Shown here: piece by piece, positions 3,377 to 54,827 of the stretch
Numbering within the stretch: position 1 is the stretch's first letter
How the letters are laid out: each line of letters begins with the position of its first letter
From: Rheinheimera sp. SA_1
GTDB taxonomy: Bacteria > Pseudomonadota > Gammaproteobacteria > Enterobacterales > Alteromonadaceae
Reading direction: 5' to 3'
NCBI RefSeq assembly: GCF_001669775.1
Contig: NZ_LXWK01000011.1
Span: 62,001 to 126,000, forward strand
DNA length: 64,000 bases
Made by a program: the position numbers and the translations under genes
Notes under the pieces: generated by a model
Database searches by the model: none
Told to the model about the DNA's origin: nothing
Seen by the model: the letters and a program-made list of their open reading frames with translations, nothing else

Positions 3377-3532
3377 CCCGAAGCCGACCGGCATTTTTAC
3401 CATCTGCCCGAACTCCAGCCACACGATGTTCTGGACTTTAGGGTAGAAGTTGCGATATTTTCAATGATATTGACATCTTTTCTACAGACCCAACCTTTAT
3501 GTTCAAGTTTTCTTGTCGGCACGATCCATTTC

Positions 3533-6500
3533 ATGCGTAAGCTGTTGAACTGGCTTGGTCTGTCCTTGGTATGTTTGCTGGCGCTGAATGGCCAGGCAAG
3601 TCAGGCCGCCGAATTAAAACCACTGCTTCAACCGCTGACGGTCGAGCAAGGCCTGTCGCGGGGCTCGGTTCGTAATTTACATATCGATCAAGAAGGCTTT
3701 TTATGGATAGCCACCAGCAACGGCCTGAACCGGTTTGATGCCACCCGTAACCTGATTGTGGGTGCTGATGACGCCAAAATTGCTGGCCTGGATTTTAATC
3801 AGGTCATTGAACACCAACCGAATCAAATCTGGGCCGTCGCCAGCCAGGTCGGAATTTTTCAGATTAATAAAACCACCGGCGCCATTCGCTTAGTGCTGGA
3901 TTTGGCGGCCCAGGAACAGCTGGAATTGCCATCGCTTACCGAAGTGATTGTTGAAGATGATGACCATCTACTGGTCGCAATCAATAGCAGCCTGTATCGT
4001 TTTTCGATTAAAACCAGACAACTCACTGAATTATTTAATTTAAAACAAGCGAACATCGAACTTGGCTGGATCCGTCAGCTCTGGCGTTATCAGCAACAAT
4101 TGTTGGTGGGTAGCAACCAGGGTTTATTCAGCATTAATCTTAAAACCGGTGAATTTCAGCTGATAAAGCTCGCGCCGACCCGGGTACACCAACTGCAACC
4201 GATGATCCGGCATCTCTATGCAACTGCAGAGCATCTGTTCATCAGCAGCAATACCTCAATCTATCGATTGCCATTGTCGCAATTACAGCAACCGGTTGCA
4301 CAATGGCAACCGGAACGTATTTTGAAGAATATCCGGGTAATGCGGATGTTACAGCATCAGCATCGCTTGTTGCTGGCAACCAGTAGCGGTCTGTACGAAT
4401 ACGACGAAGCGCAGGCATCCAGTAAATTTTTGTGGCGATTCAGTCAGGGTAGTCAGGAAGTCGGTCAGGACATCATTACCGATCTGGTGCCAACTTCAGA
4501 CGGCGGATTATGGTTAGCCAGTCGTGATGATGGCGTGTATTACTGGCACCCGCGGAGTACCGCATTTAAAAATATCCGCCTGCAGAGCTCTGACCAAAGG
4601 ACAGAAAATCTCAGTATTATGCACACGCTGGGCGCACTGGCTCTGGCCGAGGGGCAGCCAGACAAGTTATGGGTTGGCTCTGGAATTGGCCTGCAACAAC
4701 TGGATTTACGCAGCGGCGAATTTACCAGCTTTACTTATCCAGATGAAATACCAGCTGATTTTGGCCAGTCGCTTAGCCGCATCTATCCACAATCCGATAA
4801 CCATCTGTGGTTGCGCTCCAGCAATTCACTGCGCTTTTTCTCCGTCACTGACCAACAGTTTTTACCCGCCCCGCTGGCCGATCCAACGCAACAGAGCTTG
4901 TTAACAGCTGCGGTACGTGGCCACTGGCGTGACGAGCATGGTGATTTCTGGTTCTATAATTTGCATGAGTACTATCGCTATCGCCCATCGCTTGGTTTGA
5001 TTGAGCCTTTAGCAGGCTTAAAGGAAAAAGTACCACCACAGCTGGCTGGCAGATTTCTGGGTTATGTGCCCAATCAAACAAACCAAATCATCCTTAGCGC
5101 GCATGACCAGTTATGGATTTATGATACAACGACGCAGCAAGCCAGACTGATGTATCAAACAGCCGATTATCAGCCAACGTTAGCGCGTTTTGCCGACAAG
5201 CTCACGCTAGATCCACAAGGGATGTTATGGATCACATTCCATGGGGTTGGTTTGCTGGGATTTGACAGTCAGTTACAGTTAAAACATCACTTTAACGAAC
5301 AGCATTTGTTGTTAAGCAACAGTGTGTTTTCCAGTGAACTGGATGGTCAGGGCCATTTGTGGTTTTCTGGCAATCACGGCTTGTCGCGACTTGATACTAA
5401 AACCTTACGTATTGAACATTTCTCGCGCAAAGATGGTCTGGCTTCGCACACATTTAACTATGGTGCCAGTACACGCCTCAGCAACGGCAATCTGGTATTT
5501 GGCAGTCGCCAGGGATTAACGCTGGTTGAATCCCGCAGATTTGTCGAACAACCGGTCGAACCGAAAATTGCCATCACCTCGATACGGGGCCTGAATCAAC
5601 CAGCCTCGACAGCACTTGGCAATTTAACCGGCCAGACTTTTACCTTTAATTACGAAGTGCCGGGCATCGAAATCCAGTTTTCGGCCTTGAGTTTCCGCGA
5701 TAGCAGCAAAATCAGCTATCGGTTATGGCTGGAAGGTGCACAACGGCTTGATTACCCAGAACAAACTTCACCACAAATTGTGTTCCCGCAACTGCAGCCC
5801 GGCAGCTACCTTTTTAACGTCGCCGCAATTTCACCAATGACCGGCCTGGAAAGCGCGCCGGCGCAGATCCGTCTGGAGATTACTGCAGCGCCCTGGCGCA
5901 CCCAAACGGCCTATATTAGCTATGGCGCGCTATTGTTCCTATTCACGCTGCTGTGGTGGCGCAATCGCCGCCGACAACGCCGGTTGCTGGCGCAAGCGCA
6001 CAAAAAAGTAAAAATCTCCGAACAACGCTTAAAACAAGCACTGGAAGCGGTCGAAAGTGGCGCCTGGGAATGGCACTCACATAAAAACAGCATTTTCGCT
6101 CAGCGTGTGCATAGTATGCTGGGGTACAGTGAAGCACTGGATCCACTGACGATGCAGCAGCATCTGTCGTTGATCCATGTTGATGATCGCGAAGCGTATC
6201 AGCAGGCATGGCAACGTTTTACCAGCGCACCAGATAAAACCTTCGACCACAGCTACCGCATGCAGCACAAAAACGGTCATTGGTTGTGGTTCAGAGACAT
6301 TGGTAAAGTCACCGAATTATCCAGCCAGCAAAAAATTGAACGGGTGATTGGCACCTACAGCAACATTACCGAAACCCGTGCCACCAAAGAAAAAGCCCGG
6401 CTATTTGGCGAAGCGTTTCAGCAAACCCGCGACTGGGTGGTGCTGTTGGATTTAGAACAAAGAGTTATCGCCGCCAACCAGTCGTTCAGCGATGTGTTTG

Positions 6501-8056
6501 GCAATATGGACGAATATTTAACCAACCCCCGGGTCCATGATCTGGGAATTAGCCTCAATCGCCGGCGGTTTTATACCAAGTTGCTGGCCGGGATGACAGT
6601 CAATCAGCATTGGCAAGGCGAAGAACTGGTGCAATGCCCGGATGGCTCCGAGCGCCCTACCCTGATCAACATTACTGCGGTGGGTGATGATTTGCAGGTG
6701 GAGTTTTTTGTGTTGGTGTTTACTGATATCACAGCTCAAAAACAGGCGGAAGACGATTTACGTTATCTCGCGAGCTACGACACCCTAACCGGCCTGCCGA
6801 ACCGTGCCTTGCTGATGGACCGCATTTACCACGGCATCGAACAGGCGAAACGTGAACGCCGTTCGCTGGCGTTGTGCTTTATCGATCTGGATAAATTTAA
6901 GCAAATTAACGATAGCCTCGGCCACGATATCGGCGACTTACTGCTGAAAAAAGTCGCCAAACGGCTGACCGACACCCTGCGGTTAACCGACACCGTGGCA
7001 AGGCTTGGCGGTGACGAATTTGTGGTACTGCTGGAAGCCTATAAAAACGACGACAATATCAGCCACGTGGCGCGCAAGATGATTAAAACCATTGGCGAGC
7101 CGATGCAGCTTGGCGCTCATATCGTCAGTGTGTCACCCAGTATCGGCATTGCCGTGTTCCCGGAAGATGCGCATGACGCGAAAGAACTGCTCAAACATGC
7201 AGACGTGGCGATGTATCACGCCAAAGACAGCGGCCGCAATAATTTCCAATTCTTTATCAATGAAATGAATGAAAAAGCTTATATGCAACTGGCGCGGGAA
7301 ACCAAGCTTCGAAGCGCTTATCAGCAAAGTGAGTTTTTTAACTTCTATCAGCCGATTTACGACAGCCGCCAGCAAAAAGTCGTGGGCGCTGAAGTGCTGA
7401 TGCGCTGGCAATCGGATCAGGGCTTGGTGCCGCCAAACGACTTTATTCCGCTGGCCGAAGATTTAAATCTGATAGTGCCGATGACGTTAACTCTGTTGGA
7501 ACGCGCACTCTGTGATTTACAACAATGGCATCAGGCCGGTTTTAGCCTTTATCTGTCGGTGAATTTATCGACCCGCCATTTAGAGCAGGATGACTTAGCC
7601 TTACAAACCAGCAACTTGCTGCAAAAATATCAGTTGCCAGCCAGCTGCCTGCGCTTTGAAGTAACTGAAAGCGCCTTGATGCAGGATCACCAAAGCGCCA
7701 TCGCCACCATGCTGGCGCTGAGTGAACTCGGTATTCAACTGGCACTGGACGATTTTGGTACCGGTTATTCCTCGCTGAAATACTTAAAAGAACTGCCGAT
7801 TGACGCCATTAAAATCGACCGCAGTTTTGTCAAAGATATCGGCATCGACAGCAACGACGAAACCATCATCGACGCCATGCTCAGCATGGCCAACAGCCTC
7901 GGCATGTACTGCATCGCTGAAGGCGTCGAAACCGAACAACAACTGGCATTTTTCAGCCAGCGCCAGTGTTACCTTATTCAGGGGTATTTGTTTGGCAAAC
8001 CGATGCCAGCGGTTGAGTTTGGGGCTCGCTTGGCGAGCGAGCGGGATTTGGTTTAA
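3533..8056 (+). CDS. membrane sensor: two-component-type propeller, Y_Y_Y, PAS, PAS, GGDEF, EAL
   Basis: Predicted dual diguanylate cyclase/phosphodiesterase of 1507 residues controlling c-di-GMP. In order: signal peptide (about 1-27, ending QASQAAE); periplasmic beta-propeller repeats with recurring GLWLAS/FLWIATSNGL blades (about 30-690); Y_Y_Y domain (about 700-785); one membrane helix (about 793-813); two PAS domains (about 830-950 and 960-1070); GGDEF with intact GGDEF at residues 1159-1163; EAL domain (about 1265-1500). The EAL signature reads EVL (Glu1287), with DDFGTGYSSL and EGVE intact, so catalysis is plausible. An in-frame ATG at 3464 gives a 23-residue extension that would spoil the signal peptide; ATG 3533 is chosen. 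This is the classical hybrid-kinase sensor half fused straight to c-di-GMP enzymes. Its ligand is unknown; polysaccharide sensing is known for the propeller family in other phyla. Confidence 0.88.
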   Translation: MRKLLNWLGLSLVCLLALNGQASQAAELKPLLQPLTVEQGLSRGSVRNLHIDQEGFLWIATSNGLNRFDATRNLIVGADDAKIAGLDFNQVIEHQPNQIWAVASQVGIFQINKTTGAIRLVLDLAAQEQLELPSLTEVIVEDDDHLLVAINSSLYRFSIKTRQLTELFNLKQANIELGWIRQLWRYQQQLLVGSNQGLFSINLKTGEFQLIKLAPTRVHQLQPMIRHLYATAEHLFISSNTSIYRLPLSQLQQPVAQWQPERILKNIRVMRMLQHQHRLLLATSSGLYEYDEAQASSKFLWRFSQGSQEVGQDIITDLVPTSDGGLWLASRDDGVYYWHPRSTAFKNIRLQSSDQRTENLSIMHTLGALALAEGQPDKLWVGSGIGLQQLDLRSGEFTSFTYPDEIPADFGQSLSRIYPQSDNHLWLRSSNSLRFFSVTDQQFLPAPLADPTQQSLLTAAVRGHWRDEHGDFWFYNLHEYYRYRPSLGLIEPLAGLKEKVPPQLAGRFLGYVPNQTNQIILSAHDQLWIYDTTTQQARLMYQTADYQPTLARFADKLTLDPQGMLWITFHGVGLLGFDSQLQLKHHFNEQHLLLSNSVFSSELDGQGHLWFSGNHGLSRLDTKTLRIEHFSRKDGLASHTFNYGASTRLSNGNLVFGSRQGLTLVESRRFVEQPVEPKIAITSIRGLNQPASTALGNLTGQTFTFNYEVPGIEIQFSALSFRDSSKISYRLWLEGAQRLDYPEQTSPQIVFPQLQPGSYLFNVAAISPMTGLESAPAQIRLEITAAPWRTQTAYISYGALLFLFTLLWWRNRRRQRRLLAQAHKKVKISEQRLKQALEAVESGAWEWHSHKNSIFAQRVHSMLGYSEALDPLTMQQHLSLIHVDDREAYQQAWQRFTSAPDKTFDHSYRMQHKNGHWLWFRDIGKVTELSSQQKIERVIGTYSNITETRATKEKARLFGEAFQQTRDWVVLLDLEQRVIAANQSFSDVFGNMDEYLTNPRVHDLGISLNRRRFYTKLLAGMTVNQHWQGEELVQCPDGSERPTLINITAVGDDLQVEFFVLVFTDITAQKQAEDDLRYLASYDTLTGLPNRALLMDRIYHGIEQAKRERRSLALCFIDLDKFKQINDSLGHDIGDLLLKKVAKRLTDTLRLTDTVARLGGDEFVVLLEAYKNDDNISHVARKMIKTIGEPMQLGAHIVSVSPSIGIAVFPEDAHDAKELLKHADVAMYHAKDSGRNNFQFFINEMNEKAYMQLARETKLRSAYQQSEFFNFYQPIYDSRQQKVVGAEVLMRWQSDQGLVPPNDFIPLAEDLNLIVPMTLTLLERALCDLQQWHQAGFSLYLSVNLSTRHLEQDDLALQTSNLLQKYQLPASCLRFEVTESALMQDHQSAIATMLALSELGIQLALDDFGTGYSSLKYLKELPIDAIKIDRSFVKDIGIDSNDETIIDAMLSMANSLGMYCIAEGVETEQQLAFFSQRQCYLIQGYLFGKPMPAVEFGARLASERDLV

Positions 8057-8086
8057 GCGGCGGCTTAATGCGCTTTGGTTTGGTTT

Positions 8087-8323
8087 TTGTTTGGCTGCAA
8101 ACGGCTGTTTTAAAAGCGTTTCGCCTATGGCGAGTTTCTTTCTTTTGCTTCGCCAAAAGAAAGAAACCAAAGAAAAGGCGACCCCTGATCGCTCGAAAGC
8201 CCGCAATAAAATCAACAGTTTGAGGCGCCGACAAAACTCGCAGGTCGCTACCGTCGACCTGCTCAGACAGTTGTCGGCTTAAAACCTCAAACCGTCGATT
8301 TTAAAGCGGCTCGCTTTACGGGG
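8087..8323 (+). repeat. structured repeat family, copy A
   Basis: Thirty bases past the sensor gene. Near-identical to copy B (9136-9452) and related in structure to inverted copy C (10254-10458). Elements in order: small hairpin TCGCC-tat-GGCGA; hairpin with 14-bp arms GTTTCTTTCTTTTG (8134-8147) and its complement (to 8167) around loop CTTCGC; constant stretch ACCCCTGATCGCTCGAAAGC; then nested stems AAAATC/GATTTT (8208/8297), GTTTGAGG/CCTCAAAC (8218/8285), GCCGACAA/TTGTCGGC (8227/8271) and CAGGTCG/CGACCTG (8241/8255) closed by loop CTACCGT; final constant GGCTCGCTTTACGGGG. Short open frames across it are not credible genes. The family was not identified by name. It could be a structured RNA or a non-autonomous element. 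Confidence 0.85.
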
Positions 8324-8453
8324 ACTAAGAGCAAGAGCTTGCATATTTAGTATCAACATTTTTACTCAAACCACCACAAGTGGCAGAAGACCCAGCCAGC
8401 GGCATTTTTTGACCGTAACATATGATGGTTGGGTTCTCTTTAGGGTAAATCGC

Positions 8454-8508
8454 ACGATTTAATCGTATTGACCGTTTCATGCGATAAAATGTATGCTGCA
8501 TTTATCGC
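8454..8508 (+). promoter_or_regulatory. promoter and probable autoregulatory operator of the toxin-antitoxin operon
   Basis: TTGACC (8468-8473) and TATGCT (8492-8497) form a sigma-70 promoter with 18-bp spacing. Two inverted repeats embrace it: ACGATT-T-AATCGT (8454-8466) just upstream of the -35 box, and GCGATAAA / TTTATCGC (8481-8508) straddling the -10 box. Phd/YefM antitoxins are known to repress their own operon through such palindromes; operator function here is inferred. Confidence 0.6.
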
Positions 8509-8526
8509 TAAATCTGGAGCTTAATT

Positions 8527-8769
8527 ATGCAAACCCTCACGGCAAATGACGCGAAACGCAATTTTGGTGAGTTGCTGCTAAACGCTCAACGTGAACCCAT
8601 CAAAATTAGCAAAAACAGTAAAGATGCTGTAGTCGTGATGTCGATCCACGATTATGAAGCACTGGAAGCGATGAAAGCTGATTACCTGCAACACTGCTTT
8701 CACGCTGCAAAAGAAGATTTAGTGCAAGGTAATATTGTTGATGGCGAAAGTTTCCTCAAGGCTCTGTAA
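8527..8769 (+). CDS. type II antitoxin, Phd/YefM family
   Basis: Eighty-residue DNA-binding antitoxin expected to neutralise the toxin encoded 8 bp downstream and to repress the operon. The N-terminal half has the Phd/YefM pattern (TLTANDAKRNFGELLLNAQ, then PIKISKNSKDAVVVMS and a YEALE helix). The acidic C-terminal tail would wrap the toxin. A strong GGAG site lies seven bases before the ATG, and the promoter at 8468-8497 carries palindromes. It is flanked by structured repeat copies A and B. Family assignment is firm; the exact subfamily is not. Confidence 0.88.
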   Translation: MQTLTANDAKRNFGELLLNAQREPIKISKNSKDAVVVMSIHDYEALEAMKADYLQHCFHAAKEDLVQGNIVDGESFLKAL

Positions 8770-8777
8770 GCACGCAG

Positions 8778-9077
8778 ATGCAGAATAACCGATATAAATT
8801 GAGCAACTTAGCTCAAGTGCATTTACATAAAATCAAAGACTATAGCATTCAGAATTTTTCTGAATCACAGTGGCACAAATACAAAGAAGTTCTGTTATCC
8901 GGCTTTCAGATGTTAGCGGATAACCCTGGGTTAGGACGACCTTGCGCAGAGATTTACTTGAACGGATTCTACTTTCCAATTGGTAAACACGCAGCCTACT
9001 TCACAAAAGAAACCAATTTCATCTTGATCGTTGCCATATTAGGGCAGCCACAACTGCCACAAAATCACTTGCAATAG
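8778..9077 (+). CDS. type II toxin, RelE/ParE family
   Basis: Ninety-nine residues with the ParE/RelE fold pattern: KLSNLAQVHLHKIKDYS at the N-terminus, MLADNPGLGRPCAEI in the middle, and a C-terminal strand NFILIVAILG. ParE members poison gyrase and RelE members cleave mRNA on the ribosome. The GLGRP motif followed by a short basic stretch leans towards ParE, but the target cannot be told from sequence. It is translated 8 bp after the antitoxin stop with little ribosome site of its own, so translational coupling is likely. The ORF looks intact. Confidence 0.82.
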   Translation: MQNNRYKLSNLAQVHLHKIKDYSIQNFSESQWHKYKEVLLSGFQMLADNPGLGRPCAEIYLNGFYFPIGKHAAYFTKETNFILIVAILGQPQLPQNHLQ

Positions 9078-9135
9078 CATACTCATCACTTGCTGGCAGC
9101 TTATCTGCCTTGAGTAAATTCCGGTTAGCTTGTGG

Positions 9136-9452
9136 ATGTTTTTGGCAGCAAACGGCTATTTTTAAAAGCGTTTCGCCTATGGCGAGTTTCTTTCTTTTGC
9201 TTCGCCAAAAGTAAACTTTGGCCGCAAAGGGCCGGGATTAAAAAGCGTTTCGCCTTTGGCGAGTTTCTTTCTTTTGCTTCGCCAAAAGATAGAAACCAAA
9301 GAAAAGGCGACCCCTGATCGCTCGAAAGCCCGCAATAAAATCAACAGTTTGAGGCACCGACAAAACTCGCAGGTCGCTACCGTCGACCTGCTCAGACAGG
9401 TGTCGGCTTAAAACCTCAAACAGTCGATTTTAAAGCGGCTCGCTTTACGGGG
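9136..9452 (+). repeat. structured repeat family, copy B, with internal duplication
   Basis: Same orientation as copy A and almost identical from the GGCGACCCC core onward (only a few substitutions, e.g. in the GCCGACAA/TTGTCGGC stem, here ACCGACA/TGTCGGC). It is longer because the upstream hairpin module (AAAGCGTTTCGCC...CGCCAAAAG) occurs twice, at about 9165-9211 and 9241-9288, separated by CTTTGGCCGCAAAGGGCCGGG. The first hairpin lacks its 3' arm. It begins 59 bp after the toxin stop. Between its end and the next gene (9453-9641) I see only AT-rich sequence. Confidence 0.85.
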
Positions 9453-9641
9453 CTGAAATGCAAAAGCTTACTCGAGGATAATTCACTTTGAACGTGGAGC
9501 GGAAATTTAGTTTTATTTTGTTGTACCAACTTATCATTCCCATAAGAAATCATCGGGCAATAACGAACTTGATAGAATAATTCACCAGCATATACTAATT
9601 AAAGTTAAGCATAAAACCATCTATATCCTTTGCGACAACAT

Positions 9642-10124
9642 CTAACATTTTTTTTCTGACTGTTGAAGCACTACTGAATGATAAGAAAATTTTTTGCGCA
9701 ATTGATGGTAGTTCAACTGATAGCAACCTCCACTCAATATTGTCTCAATAGGATTATTGTAGCCTTTGAAAAATCCCAACAGTCCAGCGCGTTGCTTAAA
9801 AACTTCCGTTATAGATGCAGCAATATTTACAGCATCTTGATGATCGTTACAAAATTGTCGTAGAACAGTTTGATAATCAAATTCTTTAGCATGCCATCCA
9901 TGTTCTAAAGCAACATGCGTTTTAAACTCATTGATCTGCTCGAAGATAGAAGACAAGTGCCTAAAAATAATAGATACATCTACCTGAGAAATTAGCTTCA
10001 TATTCTGCTTATAGTTGCGCTCGTTTAAATCAAGTTTTTCTGTTGGCTTTGTGGTTTCCGCAACAATTTTTACAAATAAATTCTTAAACTGTTCCAATAC
10101 ATAATTCGGGTTATTCAATTCCAT
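9642..10124 (-). CDS. hypothetical protein, orphan
   Basis: Not recognised. A soluble protein of 160 residues with no signal peptide or membrane segment. It is predicted mostly helical, with an aromatic/His-rich middle (HGWHAKEFDYQTVLRQF) and a C-terminal LRKKFSYHSVVLQQSEKKC. A strong AGGTAGGGG site sits just before the ATG, which supports real translation. Base composition is clearly more AT-rich than the surrounding core genes, and it lies between structured repeat copies B and C beside a toxin-antitoxin pair, all signs of acquisition. The flanks (10125-10253) are AT-rich with nothing else visible. Confidence 0.6.
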   Translation of the reverse strand: MELNNPNYVLEQFKNLFVKIVAETTKPTEKLDLNERNYKQNMKLISQVDVSIIFRHLSSIFEQINEFKTHVALEHGWHAKEFDYQTVLRQFCNDHQDAVNIAASITEVFKQRAGLLGFFKGYNNPIETILSGGCYQLNYHQLRKKFSYHSVVLQQSEKKC

Positions 10125-10253
10125 TTACCCCTACCTTTCACCTACTAAAACCATTAATTGTAAAATATTAGCAATAATATCTAATTGGGCATATAAAATT
10201 TAGCCGCGAATGCAAGCTATCGGCAAAAAAATACACGTCCAGCCGCTTTTCCT

Positions 10254-10458
10254 CCCCGTAAAGCGAGCCGGTGGTTTGGCCGGTTTTGAGGTTTTAAAAC
10301 TGCGCACTGTCTGAGCGATTTGACGTTAGCAAATCGCGAGTTTGCGCAGTTGCCTCAAAATCGAGCCAAACTTCCGGGCTTTCGAGCGATCAGGGGTCGC
10401 CTTTTGTTGGTTACTTATTTTGGCGAAGCAAAATAAGTAACTCGCCGGAGGCGAAACC
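10254..10458 (-). repeat. structured repeat family, copy C, inverted relative to A and B
   Basis: On the minus strand this copy keeps the constant parts of copies A and B (CTTCGC loop, ACCCCTGATCGCTCGAAAGC, CTCAGACAG, GGCTCGCTTTACGGGG), while the hairpin arms have different but still complementary sequence. Stems in plus coordinates: GTTACTTATTTTG (10410-10422) with its complement 10429-10441; GCGATTTG/CAAATCGC (10315/10330) closed by ACGTTAG (CTAACGT on the element strand); AACTGCGCA/TGCGCAGTT (10298/10343); TTTTGAGG/CCTCAAAA (10284/10353); GTTTGGC/GCCAAAC (10274/10365). Compensatory change on this scale indicates selection on structure. The remaining 10459-10630 leads into the transporter gene and holds only small inverted repeats. 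Confidence 0.85.
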
Positions 10459-10630
10459 CATGCCATGCCATCGGCATGAAAAAAATCTAAATAAAACGGC
10501 AGATGGCGCAGCCATGCAAAACGTCTGTACCCAGACGCCCAAAAAGCGCCTTTGCTCTGTCGCGCCAGACAAGCTAAACTCCCGCCACTTTCCCAGCCGG
10601 AAACCCGGCCCCCAGCAAACTGCAGTGCAA

Positions 10631-11509
10631 ATGCCAATAAAAACACCATTCAACACAACCATCAAACCGCTCTACGCTGCGGCACTGCTGCTATTACTGG
10701 CTGAAGCCTGTTTCGCCGGCATCGGTGCTTTAGTGAAACTCACCAGCGCCAGTGCCAGCGAAGCACAGGTGGTGTTTTTTCGTAACTTTTTTGCCTTGTT
10801 GGTGATGTTGCCGTGGATTATTAGTCAGGGGGTGCAGATTTTAAAAACCAAACGTTGGTATTTGCATTTAAGCCGCGCTACCACCGGCATTATTTCGATG
10901 TACTGTTTTTTTTATGTGATTAGTCAGTTGCCACTGGCGCAGGCGATGCTGGTGTTGTTGCTGTCGCCTTTTGTGGTGCCGATTATTGCGCGGTTTTGGC
11001 TGAATGAACGGCCAAGCCGCTTGACGTTGTTTGCGATTGTGCTGGGGTTTGTTGGGGTCTTTATCGCCATTCCACTCGGTGGGCAAGCCAGTAGCCTGGT
11101 TATTTTATTGCTGGGGTTATTGTCAGCGGTGCTGGTGGCGGTGACCAAAACCACCATTCGATATATGTCGGATACCGAGCCTGCCGCGCGTACGGTGTTT
11201 TATTTCTCGTTGCTGACCGCCATTATTTCGTTTGTACCGGTGCCGTTTTATTGGAATCCGTTGCCTGCGGTGGCCTGGTGGGCTTTTGTCGGGATGGGCG
11301 TGTTGGCTGCTGTTGGTCAGATGGCGATGACTAAAGCCTATGCATTGGCGCCAGCCAGTGATATCGGTATGTGGACTTACAGCAGTATTATTTTTGCTGG
11401 TTTATTTGGGTATGTGTTCTGGCAAGAGCCGGTGACGATGGCCTGGTTTGGCGGAGTGGTGATTATTTTTTACGCTGGTTATATTACTTCTAGACAAAGA
11501 TTGTTATGA
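10631..11509 (+). CDS. EamA/DMT-family transporter
   Basis: Inner-membrane permease of 292 residues with about ten hydrophobic helices, arranged as two EamA repeats (about 12-145 and 155-285). DMT-family proteins export or import small metabolites, and the substrate cannot be read from sequence. The frame is open for 57 more codons upstream, but that segment is basic, partly derived from repeat copy C, and lacks a membrane character; the ATG at 10631 gives a normal family length (MPIKTPFN...). No strong ribosome site is visible at this ATG. It converges on the ABC permease gene across a hairpin at 11519-11554. Confidence 0.82.
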   Translation: MPIKTPFNTTIKPLYAAALLLLLAEACFAGIGALVKLTSASASEAQVVFFRNFFALLVMLPWIISQGVQILKTKRWYLHLSRATTGIISMYCFFYVISQLPLAQAMLVLLLSPFVVPIIARFWLNERPSRLTLFAIVLGFVGVFIAIPLGGQASSLVILLLGLLSAVLVAVTKTTIRYMSDTEPAARTVFYFSLLTAIISFVPVPFYWNPLPAVAWWAFVGMGVLAAVGQMAMTKAYALAPASDIGMWTYSSIIFAGLFGYVFWQEPVTMAWFGGVVIIFYAGYITSRQRLL

Positions 11510-54448: not shown

Positions 54449-54718
54449 TTAACGACGCAGACCTAAACGCTCGATCAGAGTTGCGTAACGAGTTGCGTCT
54501 TTACGCTTTAAATAGTCTAACAGTTTACGACGCTGAGAAACCATACGCAGCAGACCACGACGAGAGTGGAAGTCATGCTTGTGGTCAGCGAAGTGAGGTT
54601 GCAGCTTAGAGATAGTTGCAGTCAGCAGTGCAACTTGCACTTCTGGTGAACCAGTATCGTTAGCAACAACGCCGAAATCGGCCAGAATTTTTGCTTTTTC
54701 AGCGGTAGTTAGTGACAT
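54449..54718 (-). CDS. rpsO: 30S ribosomal protein S15
   Basis: 89-residue primary 16S rRNA-binding protein of the central domain. Conserved blocks: [20 protein letters not shown], the [20 protein letters not shown] rRNA-binding helix, and C-terminal [16 protein letters not shown]-type site precedes the ATG. Located between truB and pnp as in most gammaproteobacteria. Confidence 0.98.
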
Positions 54719-54827
54719 AGAATCCTCCAGGATTATTTAAACAAGCTGTCGCCAGGCACTAATCCAGCTGACAACCAAAAATGAGCGCGCATTCTAGCAT
54801 GCTCAAAACGAATTACAATTGCTATTT

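What the first reader, a model, noticed from the sequence alone, without database searches (positions are those of the whole stretch)
8087..10458. Repeat family with co-varying hairpins: likely a conserved structured RNA or mobile element
Three copies (A 8087-8323, B 9136-9452, inverted C 10254-10458) share constant blocks (loop CTTCGC, ACCCCTGATCGCTCGAAAGC, loop CTA(C/A)CGT, CTCAGACAG, GGCTCGCTTTACGGGG). Between A/B and C the arms of at least five stems change completely yet stay complementary: CAGGTCG/CGACCTG versus GCGATTTG/CAAATCGC; GCCGACAA/TTGTCGGC versus AACTGCGCA/TGCGCAGTT; GTTTGAGG/CCTCAAAC versus TTTTGAGG/CCTCAAAA; AAAATC/GATTTT versus GTTTGGC/GCCAAAC; GTTTCTTTCTTTTG versus GTTACTTATTTTG with their complements. 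The loops and linkers do not change. That is direct evidence that structure is maintained. I recognise no named family. A role in RNA processing, termination, or a non-autonomous transposon is inference.
Basis: seen in the sequence. Interest (0 to 1): 0.7.

Follow-up and report, generated by a model that had tools for sequence, protein, structure and literature searches.

The report
Paired DNA hairpins flanking swappable genes
In water bacteria of the genus Rheinheimera, elaborate hairpin-forming DNA repeats come in inward-facing pairs that enclose small accessory genes, and at some chromosomal spots different species hold the same kind of pair around different genes; what moves the genes is not known.

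Summary
In detail: three copies, constant loops, arms that change but stay complementary. It is one family, found in 22 of 22 genomes held of the genus. The RNA reading is not supported. The arms covary strongly, but G-U pairs are 0.9% of standard pairs against 14% in 6S RNA of the same genus, and A-C mismatches are no rarer than G-U. The structure is therefore kept as DNA. Of 33 close neighbour pairs of copies, 30 face inward. The two members are usually of different type (23 of 30). Pairs enclose 0.07-2.1 kb of A+T-rich DNA, mostly with accessory genes: toxin-antitoxin, DUF2971, HEPN, UDG, MerR, unknown. At three sites occupied in two species each, ends and flanks match but the cargo has no detectable similarity. 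In the window, repeat B, one ORF and repeat C form such a pair; repeat A and a YefM/ParE-type module lie beside it. The core loop motif recurs in 13 of 185 sampled gammaproteobacterial genomes. Best reading: non-autonomous, DNA-structured ends of exchangeable gene cassettes. No recombinase was identified; ordinary homologous exchange remains a live rival.

The parts
8087..8323 (+). Repeat copy A, type 1 ('CAATAAAATC' arm); outer hairpins 8087-8174, core 8175-8323
8134..8167 (+). Pyrimidine/purine hairpin GTTTCTTTCTTTTG-CTTCGC-CAAAAGAAAGAAAC in front of the core of A (same module in B and, varied, in C)
8527..8769 (+). Cargo between A and B: antitoxin gene, Phd/YefM family
   Evidence: Pfam PF02604, 42.5 bits against cut-off 29.8
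8778..9077 (+). Cargo between A and B: toxin gene, ParE_toxin family
   Evidence: Pfam PF05016, 47.5 bits against cut-off 23
9160..9214 (+). Extra partial copy of the 5' part of the repeat, directly before B
   Evidence: 98% identical to A over 54-55 nt
9238..9452 (+). Repeat copy B, type 1; core 9304-9452; left end of the pair B-C
9642..10124 (-). Cargo gene between B and C, 160 aa, no Pfam match; region 34% G+C
   Evidence: PADLOC only a weak AbiEii match, E 0.0056
10254..10457 (-). Repeat copy C, type 2 ('GAAGTTTGG' arm); core 10254-10403; right end of the pair B-C, inverted to B
   Evidence: stem-column identity to B 0.47
3464..8056 (+). Left flanking gene (PAS-GGDEF-EAL protein); lies 84-269 bp from the EamA gene's match in 8 of 16 relatives fetched
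10460..11509 (+). Right flanking gene (EamA-like transporter); ORF as listed, true start probably nearer 10640
   Evidence: (scanned from 10640)

Best explanation
These are the ends of a family of non-autonomous, DNA-structured gene cassettes. Each end is a palindromic stretch of about 220 nt: one or two small outer hairpins, then a long imperfect hairpin whose arms vary but whose internal strands AACTCG and CTCARACA and (in most) apical loop CTANCGT do not. Two ends, mostly of unlike type, face each other and usually enclose a short accessory gene or two. Shown: DNA-level conservation, inverted and mostly heterotypic pairing, copies more alike within than between genomes, and occupation of the same site by pairs with unlike cargo. 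Inferred: the ends act when one strand is extruded as a hairpin (replication, ssDNA uptake, cruciform); recombination at or inside the ends replaces the cargo and, more rarely, places a pair in a new intergenic site; the enzyme is supplied in trans and is unknown.
For: Covariation with almost no G-U. Of 33 neighbour pairs under 4 kb apart, 30 face inward, 1 outward, 2 the same way. Pair members are of unlike type: mean stem-column identity 0.58 against 0.715 when members are re-paired within my clade groups, 0 of 2000 as low. No detectable nucleotide similarity of cargo while both flanks and ends match: L049/L061 (flanks 91-93%), L144/L145 (79-87%), L048/L064 (80-83%). The borders of the match lie near the inner ends of the cores: left, 9, 8 and -1 nt past the core end; right, 27 nt before the core (cargo side) in L049/L061, 8 nt before in L048/L064, 32 nt inside it in L144/L145. 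One cargo is 98.6-99.5% identical in three genomes whose adjacent right flank is 88.5-90.4%. DUF2971 genes lie beside a copy in 4 of 15 cases. Cargo is A+T-rich (intervals 33-46% G+C against 48.7% for the window). The window site lacks the insert in 8 of 16 relatives fetched.
Against: No clean insertion with a target-site duplication was found; the empty sites read in detail differ from the filled ones by more than the element. No recombinase or transposase was seen in a pair examined. No excised or circular form, or movement, was observed. 87 of 150 listed copies have no listed neighbour within 4 kb, partly from broken contigs and from 37 copies that one search did not list. At one site the smaller state is best read as a deletion between short direct repeats, that is, passive instability. 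Seven pairs are homotypic: four in G001, G015, G021, which show one type only, and three in G012 and G017. The contrast between cargo and flank identity is weaker for L056/L148, whose flank further out is 95.6% over 459 nt. Some pairs hold little or no room for a gene (spacers of 72-246 bases).
Confidence: 0.5

Rival explanations
1. Passive hot spot. The repeats are old palindromic intergenic elements whose arms stay complementary by template switching during replication; cargo is replaced by ordinary homologous recombination between flanks or repeats, without a dedicated enzyme.
For: No enzyme found. The same window site carries other inserts of 1.06-2.8 kb, without the repeat's loop motif, in 4 further relatives. 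Deletion between direct repeats inside two hairpins at the L180/L181 site. Perfect Watson-Crick arms are what template switching would give.
Against: Inward orientation in 30 of 33 and unlike types in 23 of 30 pairs are not explained by passive recombination alone, although selection against long perfect palindromes could explain the second. The match breaks off near the inner edges of the repeats, but homologous exchange between repeats could do that too.
Confidence: 0.3
2. Structured RNA: a cis-acting or small RNA whose fold is conserved.
For: Strong covariation, conserved loops, stable fold.
Against: G-U 0.9% of standard cells against 14% in 6S RNA of the same genus, A-C as common as G-U; no Rfam match; copy number and position differ between relatives.
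Confidence: 0.06
3. Bidirectional terminators or insulators that cap converging genes, enriched because they are useful there.
For: Of 22 pairs with both neighbouring ORFs called, 13 lie between converging ORFs, 4 and 4 between ORFs in tandem, 1 between diverging ORFs (mechanical ORF calls). Terminator-like hits in 7900-10700: 14 against 3.9 expected.
Against: Most of these hits are small hairpins with broken T runs; the window pair lies between two genes in the same direction; it does not explain swapped cargo or unlike pair members.
Confidence: 0.09
4. A relative of REP/BIME repeats moved by a Y1 (RAYT-type) transposase.
For: Palindromes in inverted pairs, intergenic, more alike within genomes; Y1 matches in 19 of 22 genomes.
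Against: No Y1 match in G003, G010 and G019, which hold 10, 3 and 24 copies; the GTAG tag occurs in 0 of 95 distinct cores.
Confidence: 0.03
5. attC-like sites used by the genus's chromosomal integron integrase.
For: Integron integrase above cut-off in 18 of 22 genomes; attC-like sites right behind the cargo gene in L048 and L064; as in attC, the bottom strand folds better (94 of 95; composition shuffles 52 of 60).
Against: Integron core boxes RYYYAAC...GTTRRRY in 0 of 95 cores; G021, one contig, has a pair but no integrase above cut-off; pairs are inverted, not direct.
Confidence: 0.02

Closest known systems
Intrastrand triplex (PIT / TM-ECO) elements of E. coli (Holder et al. 2015, PMC4666352; seen: abstract, found passages, sections 15 and 16, part 1 of 2 of the discussion)
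   Same: Intergenic; five inverted pairs in E. coli MG1655 that all combine a type A with a type B motif; loci more rearranged than control sites; no transposon link found
   Different: 34-37 nt G/C-rich triplex motif; here a 220-nt element with a long covarying hairpin. My test for a mirror-image third strand behind the T/C-A/G hairpin failed (mirror better in 3, direct better in 20, tie in 13 of 36 distinct Rheinheimera forms). Swapped gene cargo is not reported in the parts I saw
MITEs, including identical MITEs flanking class 1 integrons in Acinetobacter (review PMC10969869, passages seen)
   Same: Short non-autonomous inverted repeats, intergenic, strain-variable, can bracket and move genes
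   Different: MITEs have short TIRs, direct repeats and descent from an IS; here ends are about 220 nt, mostly of two unlike types, with no parent transposase or direct repeats found
REP/BIME and RAYT or TIRYT elements (PMC3733652, passages seen)
   Same: Palindromic repeats in inverted dimers; long TIRs flank some tyrosine transposases
   Different: REPs are 20-40 bp with a GTAG or CGTC tag; no GTAG in 95 cores (CGTC not scanned); no Y1 transposase match in 3 copy-bearing genomes
Integron gene cassettes with attC sites (general knowledge)
   Same: Sequence-variable, structure-conserved hairpins; small accessory gene cargo; bottom strand folds better
   Different: attC sites are direct, one per cassette, with R boxes; here inverted pairs, no R boxes

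Membership tests
Conserved structured RNA | Covariation that passes through and tolerates G-U but not A-C | tested here: not met
   G-U 12, A-C 15 of 1391 cells; 6S control G-U 121, A-C 1 of 878
Conserved structured RNA | Match to a described Rfam family | tested here: not met
Conserved structured RNA | Stable transcript | not testable with these tools
   no expression data
MITE | Terminal inverted repeats | tested here: met
   30 of 33 neighbour pairs inverted and inward, though the two ends are mostly of unlike type
MITE | Target-site direct repeats | tested here: inconclusive
   no clean empty/filled pair; sites aligned or read show no duplication that I could call
MITE | Parent transposon with the same ends | tested here: inconclusive
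   no transposase or integrase among 20 cargo proteins put to Pfam, and none seen by eye among the other ORFs inside pairs; genomes not scanned exhaustively
REP/BIME with RAYT | GTAG tag | tested here: not met
   0 of 95 distinct cores hold GTAG; flanks of the cores not scanned
REP/BIME with RAYT | Y1 transposase in every copy-bearing genome | tested here: not met
   no match in G003, G010, G019; matches in 19 of 22
Integron attC | R boxes RYYYAAC ... GTTRRRY | tested here: not met
   0 of 95 distinct cores
Integron attC | Integron integrase in the genome | tested here: inconclusive
   above cut-off in 18 of 22; G021 (one contig) has copies but none above cut-off
Intrastrand triplex (PIT) element | Third strand that is the mirror image of the purine arm | tested here: not met
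   mirror match better in 3, direct better in 20, tie in 13 of 36 forms; other genera 6, 7 and 4 of 17
Intrastrand triplex (PIT) element | Inverted pairs combine two unlike types | tested here: met
   23 of 30 pairs; in E. coli MG1655 five of five pairs (PMC4666352)

The most novel reading that the evidence does not exclude
A distinct kind of gene-cassette system, spread over several gammaproteobacterial families: two unlike ends are recognised by the shape of their folded single strand (conserved strands AACTCG / CTCARACA, free arms), as attC is, but they face each other and act as fixed docking ends between which accessory and defence genes are swapped by an undescribed recombinase.
Probability: 0.18. 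Interest if true: 0.87.

Novelty: new variant of a known kind. Interest (0 to 1): 0.6.

Why it matters
Small defence, toxin-antitoxin and unknown genes turn over quickly at fixed chromosomal spots, and the mechanism is often unclear. Here the borders of the swapped stretch can be named to within tens of bases, in related genomes, with a marker motif that can be searched for. The G-U versus A-C count is also a simple general test that separates DNA palindromes from RNA structure when a covariation hit turns up.

Tried and rejected
Rejected readings. (1) Structured RNA: rejected by the G-U/A-C count against the 6S control and no Rfam match. (2) Triplex element: the mirror test did not favour it. 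(3) RAYT/REP: no Y1 match in three copy-bearing genomes, no GTAG in the cores. (4) attC: no R boxes. A first attC detector was useless: it found 1 site in three known integron arrays. The relaxed one found 12 there, 2 in 20.7 kb of cargo and 1 in 28 kb of background, so the two cargo hits are suggestive only, by their place right at a stop codon. (5) Target-site duplication: sites compared gave no clean empty site.

Led nowhere: phages (no match) and plasmids (only the T/C-A/G hairpin or short pieces). 87 viral contigs hold the exact apical motif, but in the 80 loci scanned only one close neighbour pair appeared, in the same direction. Literature: the searches (open-access PMC only) listed no paper that I recognised as describing this family; the motif strings gave 0 papers.

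Limits of the counts: 150 of the 187 copies reported were listed and used. One search uses all 30 inward pairs; its clade groups are mine, set from gene similarity and from the repeats. One search compared 18 pairs chosen because their loci had been fetched. The 20 proteins put to Pfam are not every cargo ORF. The 6S control left out G004, whose match is partial. That similar repeats exist in Pseudomonas and Xanthomonas I recall, but did not test by name.
Full report
What is there. The window holds three copies of one repeat: A 8087-8323 (+), B 9238-9452 (+, with an extra partial copy at 9160-9214) and C 10254-10457 (-). Each has small outer hairpins, a pyrimidine/purine hairpin (8134-8167 in A) and a core of about 149 nt. 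The core is one long imperfect hairpin: a basal AGCC/GGCT stem, variable stems, the constant AACTCG and CTCARACA strands, and an apical stem closed, in most copies, by CTANCGT.

How common it is. In the same genome 12 near-complete copies match A, A included (17 matches in all). A covariance model built from 45 copies finds copies in 22 of 22 genomes of the genus, 187 by the per-genome counts, 150 of them listed. In 295 genomes drawn from the order, searched with stricter filters, 3 have a match: two are of this genus and one is weak (35 bits) in another genus of the family. One named record is Rheinheimera riviphila. Copies are more alike within a genome than between genomes (mean core identity 0.80 against 0.66, 45 copies).

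DNA, not RNA. On the unfitted alignment 22 of 31 pairs have compensatory changes. On 95 distinct rows 681 cells are changed on both sides against 216 in shuffles, and sliding the partners destroys the signal; the count of pairs with any double change (23 against 21.3, 5 of 500 shuffles as high) and of pair types (46 against 58.9) separate little or not. But G-U makes up only 12 of 1330 standard cells and A-C 15. In 6S RNA of 21 genomes of the genus (16 distinct rows), handled the same way, G-U is 121 of 867 and A-C is 1. The core shows 311 double and 7 single changes, 6S 45 and 46. On the fitted alignment G-U is 12 and A-C 29 of 2943 cells; with the clade whose apical stem does not align removed (76 rows), G-U is 4 and A-C 15. 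An RNA helix should tolerate G-U and not A-C; these arms do not. The bottom strand folds better in 94 of 95 copies (mean difference -7.9 kcal/mol), though composition alone gives -2.4 and 52 of 60. The simplest reading is that complementarity is kept as DNA, by selection for an extruded hairpin or by template switching; these tools cannot tell the two apart.

Pairs. Among the 150 listed copies there are 33 neighbour pairs less than 4 kb apart: 30 face inward with their GGGG ends, 1 outward, 2 the same way. The distance between cores is 72 to 2095 bases. In the exact-motif survey of other families, 7 of 9 neighbours within 4 kb are also inward and 2 the same way (my count from the listing, which shows only the first places of each genome). 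Members of a pair are usually of unlike type: identity over the variable stem columns averages 0.58, against 0.715 (sd 0.038) when members are re-paired within clade groups, 0 of 2000 as low; 7 of 30 are alike (0.8 or more), against 14.8 expected. The alike pairs all have spacers of 961 bases or more, so avoidance of long perfect palindromes may be part of the reason. Of 28 pairs, 13 lie between converging ORFs, 4 and 4 between ORFs in tandem, 1 between diverging ORFs, and 6 are undetermined.

Cargo. Between A and B lies a Phd/YefM antitoxin with a ParE-family toxin; between B and C a 160-aa protein without a Pfam match. Twenty cargo proteins were put to Pfam: most from pairs, three from beside single copies (L051, L052, L063), one from another family (L190). 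Nine pass a cut-off: Phd/YefM, ParE, DUF2971 twice, TIR (beside a single copy), UDG, UPF0547 with an ankyrin repeat, HEPN, MerR. The same 20 were put to PADLOC: three match strongly (a ThsB-like TIR protein and, for the two DUF2971 proteins, candidate family PDC-S31), four partly or weakly, 13 not at all. None of the 20 matched a transposase or integrase family. Of 15 DUF2971 genes found in the genus, 4 lie within about 1.5 kb of a copy. Cargo G+C is 33-46% against 48.7% for the window. In two cargos (L048, L064) an attC-like site starts at the stop codon.

Cargo is swapped at fixed sites. Eighteen pairs were compared all against all. Three sites are occupied in two species with both flanks homologous: L049 (own genome) and L061 (G005), L048 (own genome) and L064 (G019), L144 (G019) and L145 (G012). 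In none does the cargo show nucleotide similarity. For L049/L061 the match runs through the left flank and left repeat at 91%, stops 9 bases after the core, and resumes 27 bases before the right core, on its cargo side. For L144/L145 it stops 8 bases after the left core and resumes 32 bases inside the right core; for L048/L064 the two repeats match at 78% and 71% up to within 8 bases of the core ends, but the stretch between flank and repeat does not align. L050/L062 and L146/L147 share one flank and differ in cargo. Conversely, L054, L056 and L148 share cargo at 98.6-99.5% while their adjacent right flank is at 88.5-90.4% (further out L056 and L148 are 95.6% alike over 459 nt) and their left flanks do not match one another. 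This fits spread of the loaded pair, but left-flank rearrangement is unexplained.

The window site. The PAS-GGDEF-EAL gene and the EamA gene have 84-269 bp between their matched stretches in 8 of 16 relatives fetched (G012, G019, G017, G010, G003, G018, G014, G007). In 5 (G005, G009, G021, G001, G006) they are 1.06-2.8 kb apart; in 3 the second gene was not in the piece read. The loop motif was found in none of the 16 pieces. G005 holds the same toxin-antitoxin module there, with a decayed copy-A-like remnant before it and an outer-hairpin remnant after it, and lacks the B-ORF-C pair. The other four inserts code for different small proteins. So this is a hot spot, used by this family and by other DNA.

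States of a site. At one site G010 has the full pair, G003 only the outer hairpins and G018 neither. The G003 state is best read as a deletion between direct CTTTCTTTTG repeats inside the two outer hairpins, so loss by slippage is part of the dynamics. At a second site (L170-L172) the insert lies in the loop of what looks like a terminator hairpin in G018.

Wider class. The exact motif AACTCGCTNCGCTCARACA occurs in 13 of 185 sampled gammaproteobacterial genomes, up to 32 times in one; the same pattern read backwards occurs in none. By eye, roughly two thirds of the 20 loci read also show a T/C-A/G type hairpin upstream and a linker ending in a C run, and arms on either side of the motif look complementary. 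Three short pairs in G426 lie between converging ORFs. That this class is homologous to the Rheinheimera family is likely from motif and layout but not shown by a model search.

What moves it. Y1 transposase matches are missing from three copy-bearing genomes. The integron integrase is above cut-off in 18 of 22 genomes, but the cores lack its boxes, and the single-contig G021 has a pair without an integrase above cut-off. No transposase was seen inside a pair. The mobiliser, if there is one, is unknown; homologous exchange by natural transformation or phage, with the repeats as borders, would explain much of the data.

Known relatives. The nearest parallels are E. coli triplex (PIT) elements, whose five inverted pairs in MG1655 all combine type A and type B and whose loci are unstable (PMC4666352), and MITE pairs flanking integrons (PMC10969869). 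Neither fits all tested features. I therefore call this a new variant of a known kind (non-autonomous palindromic ends around passenger genes), with a minority case for a new kind.

Noticed in passing
G000:C3:81221-82165 (locus L330) and 17 other genomes of the genus: A chromosomal integron integrase is above cut-off in 18 of 22 genomes, with a cassette array and attC-like sites in the three arrays scanned; in G017 and G019 a copy of the repeat lies about 50 bp behind the integrase gene.
   Followed up: partly
L065:3172-4221 (G019): An IS110-family transposase gene sits between two same-strand copies of the repeat, next to one of them.
   Followed up: no
L055:2705-3030 (G015): A copy of the repeat is interrupted by several other small hairpin repeats, as if hairpins insert into hairpins.
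   Followed up: no
L141, L142 (G007): Tandem arrays of the outer hairpin and of the inner end in G007, suggesting slippage or nested growth of the palindromes.
   Followed up: no
window 54662-54775 (-): Ribosomal S15 leader RNA, an ordinary known element.
   Followed up: no
Ilyobacter polytropus plasmid NC_014633.1 (L047) and order relatives L039, L040: Only a short piece around the T/C-A/G hairpin matches there (six places in the plasmid), far outside the genus.
   Followed up: no
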